A stretch of DNA of 64,000 nt, taken from the NCBI RefSeq assembly GCF_963677065.1, contig NZ_OY781872.1, forward strand, positions 677,419-741,418, given 5' to 3'. The translations under genes and the position numbers were made by a program. The stretch comes from an uncultured Methanoregula sp. (lineage in GTDB: Archaea; Halobacteriota; Methanomicrobia; Methanomicrobiales; Methanospirillaceae). This document shows positions 33,700 through 62,458 of this stretch, in pieces. Each line of letters begins with the position of its first letter. The first letter of the stretch is position 1. The notes under the pieces were generated by a model. It made no database searches. It was given only the letters and a program-made list of their open reading frames with translations, and was not told where the DNA came from.

Positions 33700-34281
33700 A
33701 TGATGTCAAAACAGAGTATCATCATTCTCCTGGCAGCCTGCGTTGTTGCAGCCCTGCTCATATCCGGATGTACCCAGTCAGCCACGCCAGCACCTGCCGC
33801 AACGGCAGCTCCCACCGCTGCACCAACAGCGGTTGCAGCAGCAACAACCGCGGCTGCAGCGCCCGGTGCAGCCGGCATGGCAAACCCCGCATCGGTCAAC
33901 TGCGGAAAGGTCGGAGGACAGACCGAGATCAAGACTGCCGCTGATGGCGGCCAGTACGGCATGTGCACCTTCACCAACGGGACTTCCTGCGAGGAATGGG
34001 CACTCTACCGTGGCGAAGGCTGCAAGGCGAACGTATCGGTAGCAGCAACAACCGCTGCAGCAACTCCCGTTTCCGGTTCAGTCGGCATGGCAAACCCCGC
34101 ATCCGTCAACTGCGGAACGGTTGGCGGCAAGACCGAGATCAAGACTGCCGCCGATGGCAGCCAGTACGGCATGTGCACCTTCACAAACGGGACTTCCTGC
34201 GAGGAGTGGGCACTCTTCCGCGGTGAAGGCTGCAAGGCAAACGTCTCGGTAGCAACAACAACCGCTGCCCCGGCAAAGTAA
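33700..34281 (+). CDS. Lipoprotein-like protein with two DUF333 domains
   Basis: A 193-residue exported protein. A hydrophobic signal ends in the lipobox LLISGC (Cys24), followed by an Ala/Thr/Pro linker and two near-identical DUF333 units: GMANPASVNCG at residue 59 and again at residue 129, each with CTFTNGTSCEEWAL and GEGCKAN. Each unit has four Cys that could form disulfides. The two units arise from a 210-base direct repeat. DUF333 occurs in extracytoplasmic proteins of unknown role. Confidence 0.85.
   Translation: MMSKQSIIILLAACVVAALLISGCTQSATPAPAATAAPTAAPTAVAAATTAAAAPGAAGMANPASVNCGKVGGQTEIKTAADGGQYGMCTFTNGTSCEEWALYRGEGCKANVSVAATTAAATPVSGSVGMANPASVNCGTVGGKTEIKTAADGSQYGMCTFTNGTSCEEWALFRGEGCKANVSVATTTAAPAK
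33874..34270 (+). repeat. Tandem 210-base coding repeat
   Basis: Two direct copies beginning at 33874 and 34084, nearly identical over about 180 bases each, including the Ala/Thr linker. They encode the two DUF333 domains. The low divergence, including at third positions, points to a recent duplication or gene conversion. Confidence 0.85.
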
Positions 34282-34332: not shown

Positions 34333-34716
34333 TCAGAGATATTTCCTTCCAGCGGGCGTGATGCTGTAGATGATCCAGTTGCCCTGGTATTCGCCCTCAA
34401 TGAGACCGCTCTCCTTGAGGATCGTAAGATGATAGGATAGCCGGGAATCCGCAATGCGCATGAAACGGTTGATGATACAGACGCAGAGCGGCTGGTCTTT
34501 TACCAGGTGCAGGATCGTGAGCCGGAGGGGATCGGAAAGGGCATGGAAGACCCTGCTTTGAGCATCAAGATCCCCTCCTGAGGGAATGCCGGAGGACAGT
34601 GCTTCAAAGCCTCCGAGGCGTTCCAGCTCTTTTCGGACCTGCTCCGGGACAGCAGCCTCGCGTTTCCCGCCTTTCAAAAGAGTGTCTCCGCAACATGAGG
34701 TCCTGGCACGAGTCAT
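34333..34716 (-). CDS. arsR: ArsR/SmtB-family metalloregulator
   Basis: A 127-residue winged-helix repressor. FHALSDPLRLTILHLV starts the fold, and CVC within DQPLCVCIINRF (Cys78, Cys80) is the arsenite/antimonite-sensing motif at the start of the DNA-binding region. SRLSYHLTILKESGLI is the recognition helix. Cys8 and Cys9 near the N-terminus could add a third thiol ligand. The frame is open far upstream, but the ATG at 34716 begins a normal-length ArsR. It is divergent from cupin-hgcA-hgcB-arsC, and an inverted repeat covers its start codon, predicting autoregulation and control of the mercury-methylation genes. Confidence 0.92.
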   Translation of the reverse strand: MTRARTSCCGDTLLKGGKREAAVPEQVRKELERLGGFEALSSGIPSGGDLDAQSRVFHALSDPLRLTILHLVKDQPLCVCIINRFMRIADSRLSYHLTILKESGLIEGEYQGNWIIYSITPAGRKYL

Positions 34717-34735
34717 TTCAAAATTATATGAAATG
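34714..34735. promoter_or_regulatory. Candidate ArsR operator 1
   Basis: CATTTCA, eight AT-rich bases, TGAAATG: a perfect inverted repeat with 7-base arms. It covers the arsR start codon, so binding would repress arsR itself. Confidence 0.65.
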
Positions 34736-34740
34736 CAAAG

Positions 34741-34750
34741 GTATATAATC
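34741..34750 (+). promoter_or_regulatory. TATA box of the cupin-hgcAB-arsC unit
   Basis: GTATATAATC lies between the two inverted repeats. Transcription should start near 34770, within operator 2, and the cupin ATG is at 34793. Confidence 0.55.
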
Positions 34751-34767: not shown

Positions 34768-34785
34768 TTTCAATAAAATTTGAAA
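34768..34785. promoter_or_regulatory. Candidate ArsR operator 2
   Basis: TTTCA, eight bases, TGAAA: the same half-sites and spacing as operator 1. It overlaps the predicted transcription start of the cupin-hgc unit, the position expected for repression. Confidence 0.65.
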
Positions 34786-34792
34786 TGATGAG

Positions 34793-35164
34793 ATGACCAT
34801 GACCCACCAGACAGTAACCCTCATGAACCAGGTTCGCAACACCGACACGCTGGCCTGGAACCCGCACCCGAAATTTCCCGGTGTTGCCCTCAGGCATCTG
34901 GTCACCGGCAGCGACACCGGGGGCCGTCTCTCCCTGCACCACGTCAAAATCGAGCCCGGCTGCGAGATCGGCGACCACACCCATGCAGGGATGGTGGAGA
35001 TCCATGATGTGATCGCAGGAAACGGAACCTGCGTTCTTGAAGGAAAGGAGATCCGGTATGCCCCGGGCTCGATGGGGGTCATGCCGGCCGATCTGGTGCA
35101 CCGGGTCACTGCCGGGAGCGCGGGGCTCCTGCTGCTTGCCACATTCTCACCACCGCTCGTATAA
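34793..35164 (+). CDS. Cupin-domain protein linked to hgcAB
   Basis: A 123-residue single cupin. Metal-binding residues of the first motif are in GDHTHAGMVEIHDV (His62, His64, Glu69), and the second motif supplies His103 in ADLVHRV. The start at 34793 is 43 bases after a TATA box controlled by candidate ArsR operators. Only 12 bases separate it from hgcA. Small cupins of this type often bind metals, act on small molecules or sense ligands. A link to mercury or arsenic chemistry is inferred from context only. Confidence 0.85.
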   Translation: MTMTHQTVTLMNQVRNTDTLAWNPHPKFPGVALRHLVTGSDTGGRLSLHHVKIEPGCEIGDHTHAGMVEIHDVIAGNGTCVLEGKEIRYAPGSMGVMPADLVHRVTAGSAGLLLLATFSPPLV

Positions 35165-35176
35165 AAGAGAGATACC

Positions 35177-36244
35177 ATGGATGCAAAAAAACAACAGACT
35201 GCCTGCGGCGGTTCAGCGGGCACTTCATCACCGGTTTGCGCCTGTACGGGGAATACAACCCCGTCCCGGGAGATCCGCCCGGCAACCAGCACCATAACAT
35301 TTGCCGACAGGTTCGATCACTTCCTCGCCCGCTGGGCAATCAGGAGAGGGAACCACCGGGTGGAACCCGGCCTGTACCGGCTTGGCAACCCGACAACGGA
35401 TTCACCGGTCTTTGCCTCGGCAAACTATACCCTGAGTTTCGATGCCCTGAGATCCGCACTCAGCGGTGTGGATGGTTATATTCTCGTTCTCGATACAAAG
35501 GGGATCAATGTCTGGTGCGCTGCAGGCAAAGGCACCTTTGGCACCGAAGAGCTCGTGCGGCAGATTGCCGGCACCGGTCTTGCAGATATCGTCAGTCATA
35601 AGAAGATCATTCTTCCCCAGCTGGGGGCACCCGGGGTATCCTGGCCGGAAGTCATGAAAAGGACAGGTTTCCGGGTTGAGTACGGCCCGGTCCGGGCATG
35701 CGATCTTCCGGAGTACCTGAAATCGCATACGGCAACACCGGCAATGCGCCGGGTAACGTTCCCTCTTTGGGATCGCATGGTGTTGATCCCCGTGGAACTC
35801 ACCCACGTTGCCCTCCCGACAATTGTAGCAGCACTTGCACTCTGGTTCCTTGCAGGACCCGTGGCGGGGCTTGCCGCCGTAGCCGCGGTTATTGCAGGAA
35901 CGGTCCTCTTCCCCATCCTGCTCCCCGTCCTGCCCACGCATGACTTCTCCACCAAAGGCCTCCTCCTCGGGCTCCTTGCCGCGCTCCCGTTTGCGTTCCT
36001 CTGGGGCGGGGCGGTTGCTCTTCCCGTATGGGCACGGGCAGCCGGGGCGATAACCCCGCTCCTCATCGTGCCGGCCGTTACCGCGTACCTTGCACTCAAC
36101 TTCACGGGATCGACAACGTTCACATCCAGGACAGGGGTGAAAAAAGAGATATTCCGGTATATCCCGGTCATGGTATGCATGGCGGTTGCAGGTGTTGCTC
36201 TCGGGATCCTGCTGGGCGCAGGCCGGCTGCTGGGGTGGATCTGA
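35177..36244 (+). CDS. hgcA: Mercury methylation corrinoid protein HgcA
   Basis: A 355-residue protein with the defining cap-helix motif NVWCAAGKGTFGT; Cys114 is the expected lower-axial ligand of the corrinoid cobalt. Residues about 65-200 form the CFeSP-like corrinoid domain (ANYTLSFDALRSAL, GVDGYILVLDTKGI, IILPQLGAPGVSWPEV, YGPVRACDLPEYL). Residues about 213-350 hold five hydrophobic membrane segments, the known HgcA layout. HgcA transfers a methyl group to Hg(II). The N-terminus has four extra Cys/Thr-rich residues runs (TACGG, VCACTG) of unknown use. hgcB starts on its stop codon (ATGA-like TGATG overlap). Confidence 0.96.
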   Translation: MDAKKQQTACGGSAGTSSPVCACTGNTTPSREIRPATSTITFADRFDHFLARWAIRRGNHRVEPGLYRLGNPTTDSPVFASANYTLSFDALRSALSGVDGYILVLDTKGINVWCAAGKGTFGTEELVRQIAGTGLADIVSHKKIILPQLGAPGVSWPEVMKRTGFRVEYGPVRACDLPEYLKSHTATPAMRRVTFPLWDRMVLIPVELTHVALPTIVAALALWFLAGPVAGLAAVAAVIAGTVLFPILLPVLPTHDFSTKGLLLGLLAALPFAFLWGGAVALPVWARAAGAITPLLIVPAVTAYLALNFTGSTTFTSRTGVKKEIFRYIPVMVCMAVAGVALGILLGAGRLLGWI

Positions 36245-36576
36245 TGTTCGATTCCTACACTGATACAACGCTTGTGCTCCATCCTGATCGCTGCATCAAC
36301 TGCAGGCGCTGCATGGAGGTCTGCCCCCACGGGGTCTTTGCTCTAGGCAAGGATACCGTCAGTATTGCACAGCCTTCAGCCTGCATGGAATGCGGGGCGT
36401 GCCAGAAGAACTGTCCCGTTCAGGCAATCGAAGTGCAGAGCGGAGTGGGCTGCGCCTGGGCGATGATCGGGGCTGCACTGAAAGGAAAGGACATGGACAG
36501 CGGGGAGTGCAGCTGTGGCGGGGAGGACAGCACCTGCTGCGGAAGCGAGAAGCCTCCCTGCGGGGATCCCAAATGA
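36244..36576 (+). CDS. hgcB: Mercury methylation ferredoxin HgcB
   Basis: A 110-residue 2[4Fe-4S] ferredoxin. Cluster cysteines are 17, 20, 23, 27 (CINCRRCMEVCPHG) and 47, 50, 53, 57 (CMECGACQKNCP), followed by VQSGVGCAW (Cys70), a conserved HgcB feature. The tail carries five more cysteines (GECSCGG, TCC, PPC; residues 89, 91, 98, 99, 106), likely mercury ligands that deliver Hg(II) to HgcA. It reduces the HgcA corrinoid. Start ATG overlaps the hgcA stop by one base, and arsC overlaps its stop by 4 bases. Confidence 0.96.
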   Translation: MFDSYTDTTLVLHPDRCINCRRCMEVCPHGVFALGKDTVSIAQPSACMECGACQKNCPVQAIEVQSGVGCAWAMIGAALKGKDMDSGECSCGGEDSTCCGSEKPPCGDPK

Positions 36577-37004
36577 AAAAAACCCGGGTCATCTTTGTCT
36601 GCACGGCCAATGCAGCACGCTCGCAGATGGCAGAAGGGTTGCTCCGGGCACGGTACGGCGACCGGTACGAGGTGTTCAGCGCCGGAACACGGCAATCGAG
36701 CGTGAGCCCGCAGGCAATTGCAGCAATGCGGGAGATAGGCATTGACATTGCGCACCACCACTCCAAGACGATTGACGCGTTTGCCGGGCAGACATTCGAC
36801 ATCGCGGTAACGGTCTGCGACCGGGCCCATCAGGTCTGCCCGGTCGTTCCCGGCGCCGGAAAAACGATCCATTACGCATTCCTCGATCCCCATACAGTAC
36901 AGGGATCCTCGGACGACATTGCCGGAGCCTACCGATCGGTCCGGGATGCAATGGCGGCCTGGATCGACCGGGAGTTCGGTACTGGCGCTGCTACTCCGCC
37001 GTAA
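36573..37004 (+). CDS. arsC: Arsenate reductase, thioredoxin-coupled (low-MW phosphatase fold)
   Basis: A 143-residue protein with the phosphatase loop VCTANAARSQMAEG (Cys10, Arg16) and the redox pair VCDRAHQVCP (Cys82, Cys89). These three cysteines have the same numbering as the well-studied Staphylococcus ArsC, so arsenate reduction to arsenite is well supported. It overlaps hgcB by 4 bases (ATGA), so it is translated from the cupin-hgcAB transcript under the divergent ArsR. No arsenite efflux gene is in the window. Confidence 0.93.
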   Translation: MKKTRVIFVCTANAARSQMAEGLLRARYGDRYEVFSAGTRQSSVSPQAIAAMREIGIDIAHHHSKTIDAFAGQTFDIAVTVCDRAHQVCPVVPGAGKTIHYAFLDPHTVQGSSDDIAGAYRSVRDAMAAWIDREFGTGAATPP

Positions 37005-40195: not shown

Positions 40196-41608
40196 ATGCG
40201 CATCCTGCTCCCCACCGGCGCTGCCACCGAAGAGATCGTAAAGCGGGCAGCAGCCGGCTCCGACGCCAGGGTTGTTGTCACCGGGGAGATCGCATCGTTC
40301 CTGACCCCGCACCGGCTCAAAAAACTCCTTTCGGAGGAGCGGTTTGATCTGGTGCTCGTGCCCGGCATGTGCACCGCCTCGTTCGAACAGGTAGAGCGCG
40401 AGACCGGTGTGCCGGTCTTTCGCGGACCCCGCCATGCAGCGGATCTCTCGCTGATCCTGCCACTTATCGGCACCATCCCCCTGTCCCGGACCGTTCCCGC
40501 GGATGAACTCCTGTCCGCAAAAAGAGCGGGGGAAGCAATGGAGCGGGTAGAGCACGCCGAATCCGCTGCAGAATACGATTTCATCATCCGGGGCGTGAAG
40601 ATCGGGGGGAACTCGAGGATGAAAGTCCTTGCCGAGATCATGGATGCCCACCGGCGCAAGGAGATCCGCGAGCTGGTTGGGAGATACTTTTCTGCGGGAG
40701 CGGATATCGTGGATCTCGGGTTCGGGTTCGATGCCGGGCCGGCGGACGTTCTCAGGGTCTTTTCCGAACTCGAAGGGATCGATCAGCCCCTTGCCGTGGA
40801 TACCCAGGACCCGGAACTGATCCGTGCAGCGCTCGGGCGGGCGGACCTCGTGCTCAGCCTGCAGGAAGAGAATATCCCGATGGTCGGAAAAGAGGTTGCC
40901 CGCACCGGTGTTGCGGCAGTTGTTGTCCCCGGCAGGAGCACGCCTGGAAAGAACATCGCCCTTGCAAAGCAGGCCGGAATCCGGTGTATCATCGCCGATC
41001 CGCTCCTCCAGCCGGCCGGTTCCGGGCTGGTGGACTCGCTCAGGAACTTCAGACGTATCCGGTATCCCGTATTCTTCGGGGCGGGGAATGTCGTCGAGCT
41101 CCTGGACGCCGACTCGCCCGGGGCAAACGCCCTGCTCGCGGCAATGGCTATGGAAACGGGAGCCGCAGTCATCTTCACAAGCGAGCATTCCGACAAGACC
41201 CGGGGCTCCGTGAGAGAGATGCGGCGGGCAACGGAGATGATGATGCTGGCCCATAACCGTCCCTATCCCAAGGATCTCGGGATCGATCTTCTCATCCTCA
41301 AGGAGAAGCGCCGGCGCCGCGAACCCCCGCTCGAATACGATACCGTCATTGCCGCAAAAGAGATGCCGGACGATCTTGCATACGATCCCAGAGGAAATTT
41401 CCGGATAGGTATCGAGGGGGAGAATATCGTTGCGGTCATTTCCGGAAGAGCAATCTGTGGAAAACGATGGCAGGACGTCCTGCATACCATACTCATCCAG
41501 GGCGATGTCTCCCTGCTGGATCATGCCGGCTATCTCGGGCGCGAGCTTTACAAAGCGGAACTTGCCATCAGGTACGGGAGAAGCTTCGAACAGGACGGCG
41601 AATTCTGA
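40196..41608 (+). CDS. Dihydropteroate synthase-like protein
   Basis: A 470-residue archaeal protein. An N-terminal domain (about 1-125) is followed by a DHPS-like TIM barrel beginning at IRGVKIGGNSRMKVLAEIMDA, with SAGADIVDLGFGFDAGPADV and PLAVDTQDPELIRAAL. A C-terminal domain starts near residue 365 (LGIDLLILKEKRRRREPP). This is the DHPS-related family conserved in methanogens that lacks classical bacterial DHPS length. A role in methanopterin biosynthesis has been supposed, but is not shown by the sequence. Confidence 0.85.
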   Translation: MRILLPTGAATEEIVKRAAAGSDARVVVTGEIASFLTPHRLKKLLSEERFDLVLVPGMCTASFEQVERETGVPVFRGPRHAADLSLILPLIGTIPLSRTVPADELLSAKRAGEAMERVEHAESAAEYDFIIRGVKIGGNSRMKVLAEIMDAHRRKEIRELVGRYFSAGADIVDLGFGFDAGPADVLRVFSELEGIDQPLAVDTQDPELIRAALGRADLVLSLQEENIPMVGKEVARTGVAAVVVPGRSTPGKNIALAKQAGIRCIIADPLLQPAGSGLVDSLRNFRRIRYPVFFGAGNVVELLDADSPGANALLAAMAMETGAAVIFTSEHSDKTRGSVREMRRATEMMMLAHNRPYPKDLGIDLLILKEKRRRREPPLEYDTVIAAKEMPDDLAYDPRGNFRIGIEGENIVAVISGRAICGKRWQDVLHTILIQGDVSLLDHAGYLGRELYKAELAIRYGRSFEQDGEF

Positions 41609-57364: not shown

Positions 57365-60300
57365 ATGACAATGATATCAGTCCTCTATGTTGACGACGAA
57401 AAGGACCTCCTTGATATTGCACAGATCTTCTTAGAAAATACCGGGGAGATTCATGTCGGGACGATGACTTCTGCAAAGGATGCGCTGACCTCGCCGGAAC
57501 TCCGGAAGTATGACGCCATCGTCTCGGATTACCAGATGCCGGGCATGAACGGGATCGCGTTCTTAAAAGCAATCCGTCAGCAGCTCGGGGACATCCCGTT
57601 CATCCTTTTCACCGGCAAAGGGCGCGAAGAAGTGGTGATCGATGCGATCAACAACGGGGCAGATTTCTATCTCCAGAAAGGCGGCGACCCTACAGCCCAG
57701 TTCGCCGAGCTGACGCACAAGATCCACCAGGCAGTCAAGAGAAAACAGGCCGAGCTGTTGCTCCAGGATTCCGAGAAGCGCCTTGAGGATATCATCAACT
57801 TTCTTCCCGATGCCACGTTTGCGATCGACCGATCCGGCCATGTCATTGCATGGAACCGGGCGATCGAAGAGATGAGCGGGGTTGCTGCAGCGGATATGCT
57901 CGGGAAGGGGGAGAACGAGTACGCCATCCCGTTCTATGGCACGCGGCGCCCGATCCTTATCGACCTGATCTTCGAACCGGACAATGTCATCCGGAAGAGC
58001 TATGGTCACATCATTCACGAGAAGGGGATCCTGATTGGGGAGACCACGCTCCCGCGGCCACGGGGGAGGGATGTTATCCTCATGGGAAAAGCCAGCCCCC
58101 TGTATAACCGGGAGGGAGAACTTGTCGGGGCGATCGAATCCATCCGGGATATCACGGAGCTGAAAAAGGCCGAGAAGGACTTGAAAAAGAGCGAAGAGTG
58201 GTTCAGAAACATAATCCAGAGCTCGTCCGACATGATCCGCATCATCGGCAGGAGCGGGCGCATCACCTACTGCTCCCCGTCCACCGAAAGGATCCTGGGA
58301 TATCCCGTATCGGAACTGATAGGGAAAGACCCCTTCGATTATATTCATCCGGATGACCTGAACGGGGCCAAAAAGGCATTGGGAGAGGTGCTGGGAAGCA
58401 CCAACCCCCATACGCCGACAGAGTACCGCATACGCCACGCAGACGGGCATTACGTGGATGTTGAGGCGGTGGCAAACAACCTGCTCGATGTGCCGGAGAT
58501 CGACGGAGTGGTTGTAACCGCCCGGCCGGTCACCGAGCGCAAGAGGGCGGTGAATGCCCTTGCGGAGAGCGAGGCCAAGTACCGCGAGCTTGCCGAATCC
58601 CTCCCGCAGGGAATTTTCGAGCTGGATCCGGATCTGCGGATCACGTACGCGAACCGGCACATCCAGGAAATATTCGGGTTCACCGAAGAAGAGATACAAC
58701 GGGGGATCGATGCCCTCTCGTTTTTTGAGCCGTCAGAGCACGGGAAGATCCGGGAGAATGTAAAGCGGATTATTCAGGGCTCATCCGTTGATCCGGACGA
58801 ATACATGGCCATAAGCAGGAACGGCACTGCGTTGCCGGTCCTCATCTATACAACTCCCGTGTACAGGGAAAAGAGACTCACCGGGTTGCGGGGAGTTGTT
58901 GTGGATATATCCGCCCGGAAAAAACTGGAGGAGGAACTCCGGCAGAAGAACGAGGAACTGCACGCAGCCTTTGAACAGATCACGGCAACAGAGGAGGAAC
59001 TCCGGCAGAATTACGATGAACTCCGCAGGCATGAGGCCGTGCTCCGCGAGAGCGAGGAGAAGTTCCGCACCCTTTCCGAGCATGCCCTGGACGGTATCCT
59101 GATTATGGACTTTTCAGGAGCCATCCGCTTTGCGAACCATGCGGCAAAACGGATCATCGATATCCCCGAGAACGGGACCCTTGACGGGCGGAACCTGCAG
59201 GAGTTCATTGCAGCAGAATCCCGGGATGCAGCTCTCTACGAATTCGGTATGATTGCCGAGGGACGGGGGGATACCTGCCTTTTGTCGTGCAGGCTTGTGA
59301 CGGAGAAGAAGCGGGAGATCTGGGCCGAAGTTGCGGGCAAGAAGATCTCGTTCTGGGGACACGAGTCCCTGCTCGTGTCCATGCGGGACATTACCGGGCG
59401 GAGAGCGGCGGAAGAAGATCTGCGGAGATCGGAGAGCAAGTTTGCCACGGTTTTTAAGAATAACCCGGTCTCGCTCACGCTGGTATCGGCAAGGGACGGG
59501 AGATTTGCCGATGTCAACCATGCGTTTCTGCGGAATACCGGTTATACCAGGGAGGAAGTCATCGGCAGGACCGCAGAAGAGCTCGGTATATTTTCCGATA
59601 AGAACGAAGCTGCCCGGTTTGTTTCTGCACTTCGGGAAACAAAGTACGTGCAGGGTATGGAACTGCAATGCCGTAAAAAGGGCGGTGAGATCCGGACCTG
59701 CCGCTTCTCGTCAAGCCTCATCGTGATGGAGAATGCACCGGTCATCCTCTCAACGATCGAAGATATCACGGAACAGAAGCTGGCAGAGGCAGCTCAACGG
59801 GAGACCGAGAGCAAATTCCGCCGGCTTGCGGATAATGCCCAGGACATCATTTACCGCATGTCGCTTCCGGATATGAAGTTCGAATATGTCAGTCCTGCCT
59901 CTGTTGCATTGACAGGATACGCACCGGAAGACTTCTACGCGGATCCTGAACTTGTCAGGAGACTGATCCACCCGGCATGGCGGGAATATTTCCAGACGCA
60001 ACGGGAGGCCATACTGGAGAAGAGAATTCCTCCGGTGTATGAGTACCAGATCATCGATAAGGCCGGGAAGGTCCGCTGGTTCAACCAGAGGAACATGTTT
60101 GTTGAAGACGGGCAGGGCAATCCCCTTGCATTCGAGGGGATCGTTACCGACATCACCCGGCAGAAAACGATTGAGAGCGAACTCCGGAAGAGCGAACTCC
60201 GGTCCCTTGCCGTGAGCGAGAATGCCGGCTCCTGGATCTGGGAAGTTGATCCCGAGGGGGTCTATCGCTACTCAAGTCCTGCAATTGGAAAAATCCTCGG

Positions 60301-62458
60301 GTACCAGCCCGACGAGATCGTGGGAAAGATGCATTTCTACGATCTGTTCGACCCGGCGGGGCGCGAGGAACTAAAGAATGCCACGCTTGACGCGTTTCGC
60401 CGGCAGGAGCCGTTCCGCGACTTTTCCAACCTCAACCGGCACCGGAACGGGACGCCCGTTCTGTTAAAAACCAGCGGGACACCGGTATTCGATGAGAACG
60501 GGATATTTACCGGCTACTGCGGTGTTGACGAGGATATCACGGAACAGGCAGCAACGCAGTCGGCCATACAGGCAATTGTCAGGAGCATTGTCGGGACAAC
60601 CGGTCTCACCTCACTCCGGCAGATAACCGAGAATGTCAGTTCCTGGCTGGGAGCCGAATGTGTCATGATCGGAGAGATCCAGCCCGACAACCAGACTGTT
60701 AAAGTCCTCTCCATGCTTCTTGACGGGAAGGAGGTCCAGGGTTTCACTTACATGCTCAAGGGGACACCCTGCGACAATGTGGCGGAGAAAGGGTTCTGTA
60801 TCTATCCCGATAACGTCTCAAAGATCTTTCCCGAGAGCAAGGATCTTACTCAGCTCAATATCCGTGGATACCTCGGGACGCCGCTGAGGAATTCATCGGG
60901 GAAGGTATTTGGGATCCTCTGTGCCCTTTCCCGGAATCCGCTCCGCTCGCTTCCACCGGTACAGGAGATCATGGAGATCATTGCCGTGAAAGCCGCTGCC
61001 GAGATCGAGCGCAGCCAGATCGAGCGCACGCTCGATAAAAACCAGCACCTGCTCGGGGAGGCAATGGATCTTGCCAACCTGGTCAACTGGGAGTACGATG
61101 TCGCATCGACCACGTTCACGTTCGATGACCGGTTCTACACCCTGTACGGTACGACCGCGGAACGGGAGGGCGGCAACCTGATGCCGGCAGAAGTCTATGC
61201 CCGGGAATTCGTCCACCCGGACGACCGCCGGTTCGTATGGGAAGAAGTCGAGCGGGCGCTGACAGCCGCCGATCCCGGCTACATGGCGCAGATGGAGCAC
61301 CGCATCATCCGGCGGGACGGGGAGATCCGGCACATCGTTGTGCGGATCAGGATCGAGAAGGACAGTAAGGGCAGGACCGTAAAAACCCACGGGGCAAACC
61401 AGGATATCACCGATATCAGGAAAGCCGAGGTGGCACTCAGCGAGAGCGAGGAGAAGTACCGCTCGCTTGTGGAGACTTCCCCGGGCATGATCTGGGAGAT
61501 TGATTCAGGGGGGATATTCCGGTACATCAGTCCCATGATGAGAACGATCATGGGATATGAGCCCGAAGAACTCACCGGAAAACCGATAACCGATCTCATA
61601 ATCGAGCAGGGGCGACCTTTCGTGATGAAGGAACTCTCCCGGCACGTGACAACGGACGGACCCATCCCGCCGTTCGAAGTCCCGGCCCGTCACCGGAACG
61701 GCCGGTTCATGGTGATCGAGATCCGCCCGTCCAGGATAACCGGGGCCGATGGCAAACTGGCGGGGCTCCGGGGAGTGGCTTACGATGTCACCGAGCGCAA
61801 GAAAGCCGAAGAGGCACTCCACCGGGCCAACCGCCAGCTCACCCTCCTGGGGAGTATCACAAGGCATGATCTCCTCAACAAGATCACCGTTATTGTCGGG
61901 TATCTCAAGATCGCAAAGAAGAGATCCCAGGATCCCGCCATAACCGAATACCTGGACAAGATGCATGCAGCCACAAATGCGATCACAGCGCAGATCGAGT
62001 TCACGCGCATCTACCAGAAACTCGGTACGCACGAGCCGCAGTGGATAGATCTCGAAGAGATCATGCCCTTTTCCCACCTGCCGGCCGCAGTCTCCCTGGA
62101 GGCAGAAGTCCGGGGGATTTCGGTTCTTGCCGACCCGATGCTGGAGAGGGTCTTTTTCAATCTTCTCGACAACTCGATCCGGCACGGGGAACGGGTGACC
62201 AGGATCCGGGTATCCTGCACATATTCCGGAGAAGACCTCATCATCGTCTGGGAAGATAACGGAACGGGAATCCCGGGTGAGGACAAACCGCACATCTTCG
62301 AGCGGGATTTCGGGAGCAACACCGGCCTGGGCCTGTTCCTGGTCAGGGAGATCCTCTCGCTCACGGGAATCACGATCCGGGAGACCGGGGTACAGGGGGA
62401 AGGGGCCCGGTTCGAGATCCTGGTGCCGGAGCACTTCTGGCGCAAAAGCGGGGAGTGA
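57365..62458 (+). CDS. Multi-PAS sensor histidine kinase with N-terminal receiver domain
   Basis: A 1697-residue cytoplasmic signalling protein with no membrane segment. An N-terminal receiver domain (about 1-125; acidic Asp10/Asp11, phospho-acceptor Asp55 in VSDYQMPG, Lys in TGKG) is followed by about seven PAS units to residue 1060. A GAF domain (about 1065-1215) and two more PAS units follow. The kinase core has H box SITRHDLLNKI (His1501), N box NLLDNSIRHG, DNGTGIPG and GLGLFLV. Several PAS units have HPDD/PAC ends. The receiver at the N-terminus and the H box RHDLLN are typical of methanomicrobial hybrid kinases. A related gene follows 3 bases later. Confidence 0.92.
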   Translation: MTMISVLYVDDEKDLLDIAQIFLENTGEIHVGTMTSAKDALTSPELRKYDAIVSDYQMPGMNGIAFLKAIRQQLGDIPFILFTGKGREEVVIDAINNGADFYLQKGGDPTAQFAELTHKIHQAVKRKQAELLLQDSEKRLEDIINFLPDATFAIDRSGHVIAWNRAIEEMSGVAAADMLGKGENEYAIPFYGTRRPILIDLIFEPDNVIRKSYGHIIHEKGILIGETTLPRPRGRDVILMGKASPLYNREGELVGAIESIRDITELKKAEKDLKKSEEWFRNIIQSSSDMIRIIGRSGRITYCSPSTERILGYPVSELIGKDPFDYIHPDDLNGAKKALGEVLGSTNPHTPTEYRIRHADGHYVDVEAVANNLLDVPEIDGVVVTARPVTERKRAVNALAESEAKYRELAESLPQGIFELDPDLRITYANRHIQEIFGFTEEEIQRGIDALSFFEPSEHGKIRENVKRIIQGSSVDPDEYMAISRNGTALPVLIYTTPVYREKRLTGLRGVVVDISARKKLEEELRQKNEELHAAFEQITATEEELRQNYDELRRHEAVLRESEEKFRTLSEHALDGILIMDFSGAIRFANHAAKRIIDIPENGTLDGRNLQEFIAAESRDAALYEFGMIAEGRGDTCLLSCRLVTEKKREIWAEVAGKKISFWGHESLLVSMRDITGRRAAEEDLRRSESKFATVFKNNPVSLTLVSARDGRFADVNHAFLRNTGYTREEVIGRTAEELGIFSDKNEAARFVSALRETKYVQGMELQCRKKGGEIRTCRFSSSLIVMENAPVILSTIEDITEQKLAEAAQRETESKFRRLADNAQDIIYRMSLPDMKFEYVSPASVALTGYAPEDFYADPELVRRLIHPAWREYFQTQREAILEKRIPPVYEYQIIDKAGKVRWFNQRNMFVEDGQGNPLAFEGIVTDITRQKTIESELRKSELRSLAVSENAGSWIWEVDPEGVYRYSSPAIGKILGYQPDEIVGKMHFYDLFDPAGREELKNATLDAFRRQEPFRDFSNLNRHRNGTPVLLKTSGTPVFDENGIFTGYCGVDEDITEQAATQSAIQAIVRSIVGTTGLTSLRQITENVSSWLGAECVMIGEIQPDNQTVKVLSMLLDGKEVQGFTYMLKGTPCDNVAEKGFCIYPDNVSKIFPESKDLTQLNIRGYLGTPLRNSSGKVFGILCALSRNPLRSLPPVQEIMEIIAVKAAAEIERSQIERTLDKNQHLLGEAMDLANLVNWEYDVASTTFTFDDRFYTLYGTTAEREGGNLMPAEVYAREFVHPDDRRFVWEEVERALTAADPGYMAQMEHRIIRRDGEIRHIVVRIRIEKDSKGRTVKTHGANQDITDIRKAEVALSESEEKYRSLVETSPGMIWEIDSGGIFRYISPMMRTIMGYEPEELTGKPITDLIIEQGRPFVMKELSRHVTTDGPIPPFEVPARHRNGRFMVIEIRPSRITGADGKLAGLRGVAYDVTERKKAEEALHRANRQLTLLGSITRHDLLNKITVIVGYLKIAKKRSQDPAITEYLDKMHAATNAITAQIEFTRIYQKLGTHEPQWIDLEEIMPFSHLPAAVSLEAEVRGISVLADPMLERVFFNLLDNSIRHGERVTRIRVSCTYSGEDLIIVWEDNGTGIPGEDKPHIFERDFGSNTGLGLFLVREILSLTGITIRETGVQGEGARFEILVPEHFWRKSGE

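What the first reader, a model, noticed from the sequence alone, without database searches (positions are those of the whole stretch)
35177..36576. Mercury methylation genes hgcA and hgcB in a methanogen
The 355-residue protein carries NVWCAAGK followed by a five-segment membrane domain. The next gene is a 2[4Fe-4S] ferredoxin with VQSGVGC and a Cys-rich tail. This pair is the established genetic marker for methylmercury production. It predicts that this organism methylates Hg(II).
Basis: partly seen in the sequence, partly recalled or inferred. Interest (0 to 1): 0.9.

Follow-up and report, generated by a model that had tools for sequence, protein, structure and literature searches.

The report
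Mercury-methylation genes behind arsenic-type switch
This methane-making archaeon carries the known gene pair for making toxic methylmercury, which is ordinary for its genus, but here the pair sits behind a paired DNA control site of the kind found at arsenic-resistance genes, which suggests that arsenic-type stress may control it.

Summary
The 355-aa protein is HgcA (443 bits, curated cut-off 275) and the overlapping gene is HgcB (115 bits, cut-off 99). The cap-helix Cys, five-helix membrane domain, two cluster motifs and VQSGVGC are present. The pair is ordinary for the genus, Methanoregula: 30 of 39 genomes pass the HgcA cut-off, and both cultured species are published carriers (PMC5893877). 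In 20 of 30 genus loci the AbrB-like gene HgcC precedes hgcA; this genome shows none. A divergent ArsR gene and a cupin gene stand there instead. Between them lie two palindromes, TTTCA-N8-TGAAA, 52 bp apart. That twin occurs at 34 places in 27 of 39 genus genomes (reversed-pattern control 0), 31 of them beside an ArsR gene. One fronts this genome's own acr3 operon. Eleven hgcAB loci in three genera carry it. Best reading: hgcAB here belongs to an ArsR regulon. Published work assigned arsR control mainly to bacteria and a toxin-antitoxin-like gene to archaea (PMC10349881). Binding, inducer and methylation are untested.

The parts
34333..34716 (-). ArsR/SmtB-type metalloregulator gene, 127 aa from the start codon I infer (ATG at 34716-34714, inside the first palindrome); PLCVC and N-terminal CC
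   Evidence: NF033788 73.1 bits, cut-off 55, on 34336-34722; PF01022 41.7 bits, cut-off 22; Cys conservation
34716..34733 (.). palindrome 1, TTTCA-N8-TGAAA (predicted ArsR operator, overlaps arsR start codon)
34742..34749 (+). TATATAAT, TATA-box-like, between the palindromes
   Evidence: read from sequence; TATATA in 24 of 29 unique genus twins but 4 of 29 from the order sample
34768..34785 (.). palindrome 2, TTTCA-N8-TGAAA, 52 bp from palindrome 1, 7 bp before the cupin ATG
34793..35164 (+). small cupin-domain protein, 123 aa, first gene of the predicted cupin-hgcA-hgcB transcript
   Evidence: PF07883 36.4 bits, cut-off 27.2; absent from some ArsR-type loci, e.g. G001 and G017
35177..36244 (+). 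hgcA, 355 aa, corrinoid protein with cap Cys114 and five-helix membrane domain
   Evidence: NF040863 443.3 bits, cut-off 275; structure model
36244..36576 (+). hgcB, 110 aa, 2[4Fe-4S] ferredoxin with Cys70 and Cys-rich tail
   Evidence: NF040864 114.6 bits, cut-off 99; motifs
36573..37004 (+). ArsC-like low-molecular-weight phosphatase-fold protein, 143 aa, overlaps the hgcB stop; a resident gene of the locus rather than an hgcAB partner
   Evidence: TIGR02691 116 bits, below its cut-off 174; PF01451 67 bits, cut-off 23; Cys10/82/89; present at the locus without hgcAB in relatives

Best explanation
35177-36576 is an intact hgcAB pair. By published work on other HgcAB (not tested here), HgcA carries a methylcorrinoid bound by the cap Cys and passes the methyl group to Hg(II), while HgcB supplies electrons and Cys ligands. 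In this organism the pair is most likely read from a divergent promoter, as cupin-hgcA-hgcB and probably on into the overlapping arsC, opposite an ArsR-type regulator gene. Two ArsR dimers are predicted to bind the twin palindromes, 52 bp (about five helical turns) apart, flanking a TATA-like box and lying over the arsR start codon and just before the cupin start codon. They would keep both directions off until a thiophilic metal(loid), most likely As(III), binds the ArsR cysteines. This arrangement stands in place of HgcC, the AbrB-like gene found in the same slot in most relatives. Shown here: gene identity, the conserved twin, its association with ArsR and ars genes, no HgcC match in this genome. 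Inferred: binding, repression, inducer, co-transcription, MeHg production.
For: Profiles and structure model for HgcA/HgcB. Twin: 2 single sites in the window against 0.04 expected; 34 twins in 27 of 39 genus genomes with reversed-pattern control 0 in every genome; 31 of 34 within 200 bp of an ArsR homologue; in the order sample 52 of 199 genomes (genus included), control 0, and of the 30 of these loci held outside the genus 18 have ArsR within 300 bp and 24 within 1 kb. The twin lies in the roughly 1.5-kb flanks of hgcA in exactly the 8 ArsR/cupin-type loci of L007-L036 and in none of the other 22, and in three more hgcAB loci outside the genus. In G036 and G038 it precedes cupin-hgcAB although no ArsR gene is adjacent. 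The same genome has a twin before its ArsP-Acr3-ArsC operon. HgcC and ArsR/cupin never share the slot in the 29 usable loci.
Against: No binding, expression or methylation data. Of 39 ArsR homologues found, 8 have no twin within 200 bp, some of them partial or near contig ends. One twin (G028) is 4.3 kb from the nearest ArsR homologue found. 12 of 39 genus genomes have no twin. The own genome has 10 single palindromes, 2 of them here; I did not examine the other 8. The TATATA spacer is not kept across the order (4 of 29). Two HgcC-type loci (G024, G025) and G007 have a twin 4-6 kb upstream of hgcA within or near ars genes, so the two kinds of neighbour are not fully separate. The slot exclusivity partly follows from competition for one place and from kinship.
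Confidence: 0.7

Rival explanations
1. Plain hgcAB with an incidental neighbour: ArsR and the twin control only arsR and the cupin gene, and hgcAB has its own promoter or a different regulator.
For: The cupin gene, not hgcA, is next to the second palindrome in the window; the cupin-ArsR pair with the twin also occurs away from hgcAB, e.g. G010, G030, G035.
Against: Only 12 bp separate the cupin stop (35164) from the hgcA ATG. In G001, G017 and G202 no cupin gene is found and the twin stands directly before hgcA. G036 and G038 keep the twin before cupin-hgcAB without an adjacent arsR.
Confidence: 0.22
2. hgcA-hgcB-arsC is a functional three-gene unit in which ArsC works with HgcAB.
For: Overlapping stop and start codons; in 19 of 39 genus genomes an ArsC match lies just after hgcB.
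Against: The same arsC sits in the trp - arsC - truA backbone without hgcAB in relatives (15 loci L154-L168, with gaps in three of them), and 11 of the 30 hgcA genomes over the cut-off have hgcAB without arsC beside it within the stretch searched.
Confidence: 0.06
3. The protein is a CFeSP-type corrinoid protein of the acetyl-CoA pathway, not HgcA.
For: PF03599 match and CFeSP structures among the hits.
Against: 443 bits to HgcA against 73 bits to the CFeSP gamma-subunit model (cut-off 306); cap Cys and membrane domain present; the genome has other, full-length CdhD-family genes.
Confidence: 0.01

Closest known systems
hgcAB of Methanoregula and other Methanomicrobiales
   Same: Same gene pair, same order and features; 65-75% identity of this HgcA core to most order relatives tested; the genus is a published hgcAB carrier (PMC5893877).
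   Different: Most relatives have HgcC upstream; here ArsR plus cupin.
ArsR-like regulator of hgcAB in Pseudodesulfovibrio mercurii ND132 (bacterium)
   Same: An ArsR-family gene next to hgcAB, there shown to control it and to respond to arsenic (known to me only through passages of PMC10349881, PMC7438021 and PMC12953829; the paper itself is not held).
   Different: Archaeal, divergent, with a twin operator shared with ars operons; no experiment. I did not compare the two ArsR sequences.
HgcC / near_HgcAB (NF040962), very probably the PrlF/MazE-like TA gene of PMC10349881
   Same: Occupies the slot just upstream of hgcA in 20 of 30 genus loci; two examples score 114 and 129 bits, cut-off 70.
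   Different: No match in this genome at E 0.001.
HgcAB-like fusion protein (NF043039)
   Same: Related domains: 209.8 bits for HgcA, 53.9 for HgcB.
   Different: Below the cut-off of 285; here two separate genes.

Membership tests
HgcA | Score above the curated HgcA cut-off | tested here: met
   443.3 bits, cut-off 275
HgcA | Cap-helix Cys in N(V/I)WCA(A/G)GK, absent from CFeSP | tested here: met
   Cys114; NVWCAAGK invariant in 32 aligned archaeal and bacterial rows; feature as given in PMC7305189 passages
HgcA | C-terminal membrane domain of five helices | tested here: met
   five long helices in the model; hydropathy consistent
HgcB | Score above the cut-off and two CxxCxxCxxxCP motifs | tested here: met
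   114.6 bits, cut-off 99; Cys 17-27 and 47-57
HgcB | Conserved Cys after the second motif (Cys73 of ND132) and C-terminal Cys | tested here: met
   Cys70 in VQSGVGC; tail Cys 89, 91, 98, 99, 106
HgcAB | Formation of methylmercury | not testable with these tools
   needs culture or enzyme assay
ArsR/SmtB metalloregulator | winged-helix ArsR domain over cut-off | tested here: met
   NF033788 73.1 bits, cut-off 55
ArsR/SmtB metalloregulator | Cys metal site (CxC in the recognition region) | tested here: met
   PLCVC in 26 of 27 aligned rows, the other lacks the region; that CxC binds As(III) is recalled
ArsR/SmtB metalloregulator | Operator binding released by metal | not testable with these tools
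   inferred from the conserved twin only
HgcC-type hgcAB locus | HgcC gene just upstream of hgcA | tested here: not met
   no HgcC match in this genome at E 0.001
thioredoxin-type ArsC (TIGR02691) | score above the curated cut-off; Cys10, 82, 89 | tested here: inconclusive
   116 bits, below the cut-off 174.3, but the three Cys are present

The most novel reading that the evidence does not exclude
In part of the Methanomicrobiales, hgcAB is a member of the ArsR (arsenic or thiophilic-metal) regulon, controlled by a twin operator with 52-bp spacing that is shared with Acr3/ArsP efflux operons, and has been switched several times between this control and HgcC. Methylmercury production in these methanogens would then be induced by arsenic or similar metals, and the native role of HgcAB would lie in metal(loid) stress.
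Probability: 0.5. Interest if true: 0.7.

Novelty: new variant of a known kind. Interest (0 to 1): 0.5.

Why it matters
What turns hgcAB on in methanogens is an open question with bearing on methylmercury in wetlands and paddies. [quoted passage not shown] Here the two kinds alternate within one archaeal genus, and the ArsR kind comes with a precise operator shared with arsenic-efflux genes. That makes arsenic control of archaeal methylmercury production directly testable.

Tried and rejected
CFeSP identity: rejected on scores. ArsC as a functional partner of HgcAB: judged unlikely, because arsC is resident at the locus without hgcAB in relatives. One clade for all hgcA at the trp-arsC place: rejected (AU p 0.00014); one clade for all ArsR/cupin-type hgcA: rejected (p 0.0003). 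These groups were defined before the tree was built, but the tree holds one very long outgroup row (og_L037). MerB in the own genome: no match, but the controls rang nowhere either, so absence is not shown. Cys-rich N-terminal tail of HgcA: at least 2 Cys in 30 of 30 genus rows, 16 of 16 further order rows, and 42 of the 75 usable rows of the 80 from genome contigs, a set that also holds members of this order; the tail limits are rough because start codons are uncertain.

Literature: the searches (open-licence papers only) showed me no report of this operator or of ArsR control of archaeal hgcAB beyond the one Methanosphaerula genome with an arsR-like gene in PMC10349881; most hits were seen as listings only. 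What I saw: PMC10349881, PMC7438021, PMC5893877, PMC7305189, PMC12953829: passages found by term; PMC11588087: outline, abstract and the start of the introduction.

My errors: the query labelled DGC was an out-of-frame piece of acr3; I ignore its rows and repeated the test with correct queries. My first list of HgcC-type stretches without the site included L146 (G024), whose stretch merely begins after the twin; G024 has the twin about 6 kb upstream of hgcA, and the count now rests.

Full report
WHAT IS THERE. The window lies in a 3,173,737-bp genome held as one contig. I place it in Methanoregula because same-genus handles have contigs of exactly the length of named Methanoregula records: G033:C1 1,949,073 bp = CP121470.1, G026:C26 32,311 bp = JAJRBZ010000088.1, G024:C12 78,654 bp = JAJRCF010000012.1. 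hgcA (35177-36244) and hgcB (36244-36576) score 443 and 115 bits on NCBI's equivalog models (cut-offs 275 and 99). The HgcA model has a corrinoid domain with the cap helix and five long C-terminal helices. Its best structural match is the deposited computed HgcAB model 9a0b_A (E 1.6e-18), then CFeSP. The defining sequence features given in PMC7305189 (passages) are met. SAM was shown to be the methyl donor of a heterologously expressed HgcAB (PMC11588087, abstract).

HOW ORDINARY. HgcA passes its cut-off in 30 of 39 genus genomes and 64 of 199 sampled order genomes. PMC5893877 (abstract and passages) lists both sequenced Methanoregula species as hgcAB+ and reports MeHg from eight of nine hgcAB+ methanogens tested. 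The pair itself is already known.

WHERE IT SITS. An ArsC-like gene overlaps the end of hgcB by four bases. In relatives the trpB-trpA - arsC - (malic enzyme) - truA - PHP - DHPS-like backbone occurs without hgcAB: 15 loci, L154-L168, of which L162 and L163 show no trp gene and L166 shows only arsC in the stretch. In 19 of 39 genus genomes an ArsC match lies just after hgcB, in 18 of them the genome's best ArsC match. So hgcAB stands beside a resident arsC. HgcA proteins from this place do not form one clade (AU p 0.00014). Location, with absence as a third state, changes at least 10 times on the backbone tree of 30 genomes and at least 5 times on the HgcA tree. Repeated arrival and repeated moves away are both possible.

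THE SLOT BEFORE hgcA. Most genus loci carry an AbrB/MazE-like gene there. Two examples score 114 and 129 bits on NCBIfam's HgcC model, cut-off 70. It very probably is the TA-like gene that PMC10349881 (passages) proposed as the archaeal regulator: among 31 confirmed methylators that paper found arsR upstream of hgcA in 14, 13 of them bacterial, and the TA gene in 8, 6 of them archaeal. Among my 30 genus loci L007-L036: HgcC 20, ArsR and/or cupin 8, neither 1 (G007), cut off 1 (G031), both 0. Fisher p is 2e-6 on the 29 usable loci, but they are related and compete for one place, so this is descriptive. The eight are G000 (window), G037, G002 and G029 (ArsR and cupin), G036 and G038 (cupin), G001 and G017 (ArsR). 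The type changes at least three times on both trees, with G007 and G031 left out. Genome-wide, HgcC passes its cut-off in 25 of 39 genomes; the window genome has no match, and of the eight only G038 has one, elsewhere in its genome.

THE TWIN. Between arsR and the cupin gene lie TTTCA-N8-TGAAA at 34716-34733 and 34768-34785. The window has exactly these two; shuffles average 0.04 and none of 100 has two. The whole genome has ten such sites; I did not examine the eight elsewhere. Two of them 52 bp apart, relaxed to TTCA-N8-TGAA, occur at 34 places in 27 of 39 genus genomes, and the reversed pattern nowhere. Of the 34, 31 lie within 200 bp of an ArsR homologue; G028's is 4.3 kb away; those of G036 and G038 stand before cupin-hgcAB with no ArsR homologue adjacent, where an ArsR encoded elsewhere could act. 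Conversely 8 of 39 ArsR homologues have no twin within 200 bp. In 558,896 bases of genus loci held before the pattern search, several fetched because they hold ArsR genes, the unique site pairs within 200 bp are 52 bp (13) or 54 bp (1) apart. The spacer holds TATATA in 24 of 29 unique genus twins but in 4 of 29 from the order sample.

TWIN AND hgcAB. Among L007-L036, whose flanks are at most about 1.5 kb, the twin appears in exactly the eight ArsR/cupin-type loci and in none of the other 22. G024 and G025 (HgcC type) and G007 (neither) have a twin 4-6 kb upstream of hgcA; in G024 and G025 ArsP and Acr3 genes lie in the same cluster. In the order sample 52 of 199 genomes, the genus included, have the twin, control 0. 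Of the matches outside the genus I hold 30 loci, L210-L239. ArsR lies within 300 bp in 18 and within 1 kb in 24, and all 30 have an ArsR, Acr3, ArsP, ArsC or HgcA match within 1.5 kb; some ArsP matches are weak (20-25% identity), L227 rests on such a match alone, and L226 rests on ArsP alone at 35%. Three of the 30 are hgcAB loci: G142 and G074 (another family) and G202 (another genus); none shows an HgcC match. With the eight in the genus that makes 11 hgcAB loci. The window genome's second twin stands between an ArsR gene and a run of DGC, DGC, ArsP, Acr3 and ArsC-like genes.

ARSR. The window ArsR keeps PLCVC, present in 26 of 27 aligned rows (the other lacks the region); the N-terminal Cys pair is kept in 21 and 19 of 27. 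From memory this resembles thiolate-type ArsR/CadC sensors. The inducer is not established; As(III) is my first guess because the same twin stands by Acr3 and ArsP genes.

HOW IT WORKS (inferred). ArsR dimers on both palindromes would block the central TATA-like box and both start regions; a thiophilic metal(loid) would release them, and cupin-hgcAB would be transcribed. HgcAB would then methylate Hg(II). No step from binding on has been tested.

VERDICT. Observation confirmed; identity supported; the pair is already known in the genus. The ArsR and twin-operator context is a new variant that qualifies the published split between archaeal and bacterial hgcAB neighbours. I found no report of it in the searches named in Tried and rejected.

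Noticed in passing
35177-35280 (HgcA residues 1-35): HgcA has an unstructured Cys-containing N-terminal tail; at least two Cys occur there in all 30 genus rows and all 16 further order rows checked. A possible Hg(II)-binding arm.
   Followed up: partly
G028:C363:6793-7385 and G034:C168:1505-2094: HgcC-like genes over the HgcC cut-off lie directly beside ArsR genes away from hgcA; G028 has no HgcA over the cut-off (71% complete). HgcC may not be strictly tied to HgcAB.
   Followed up: no
L178 and L179 (G025, G024): hgcAB with HgcC lies in the same cluster as ArsR, cupin, ArsP-type permease and Acr3-type genes; the G024 Acr3-like protein is just under its cut-off (270.9 of 282.8).
   Followed up: partly
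33700-34281 (+): Lipoprotein-like protein with two DUF333 repeats between trpA and arsR.
   Followed up: no
40196-41608 (+): Dihydropteroate-synthase-like protein (TIGR00284) with a weak CdhD match, 3.6 kb from hgcB, part of the conserved backbone.
   Followed up: no
57365-62458 (+): 1697-aa multi-PAS sensor kinase with a receiver domain and HATPase domain.
   Followed up: no
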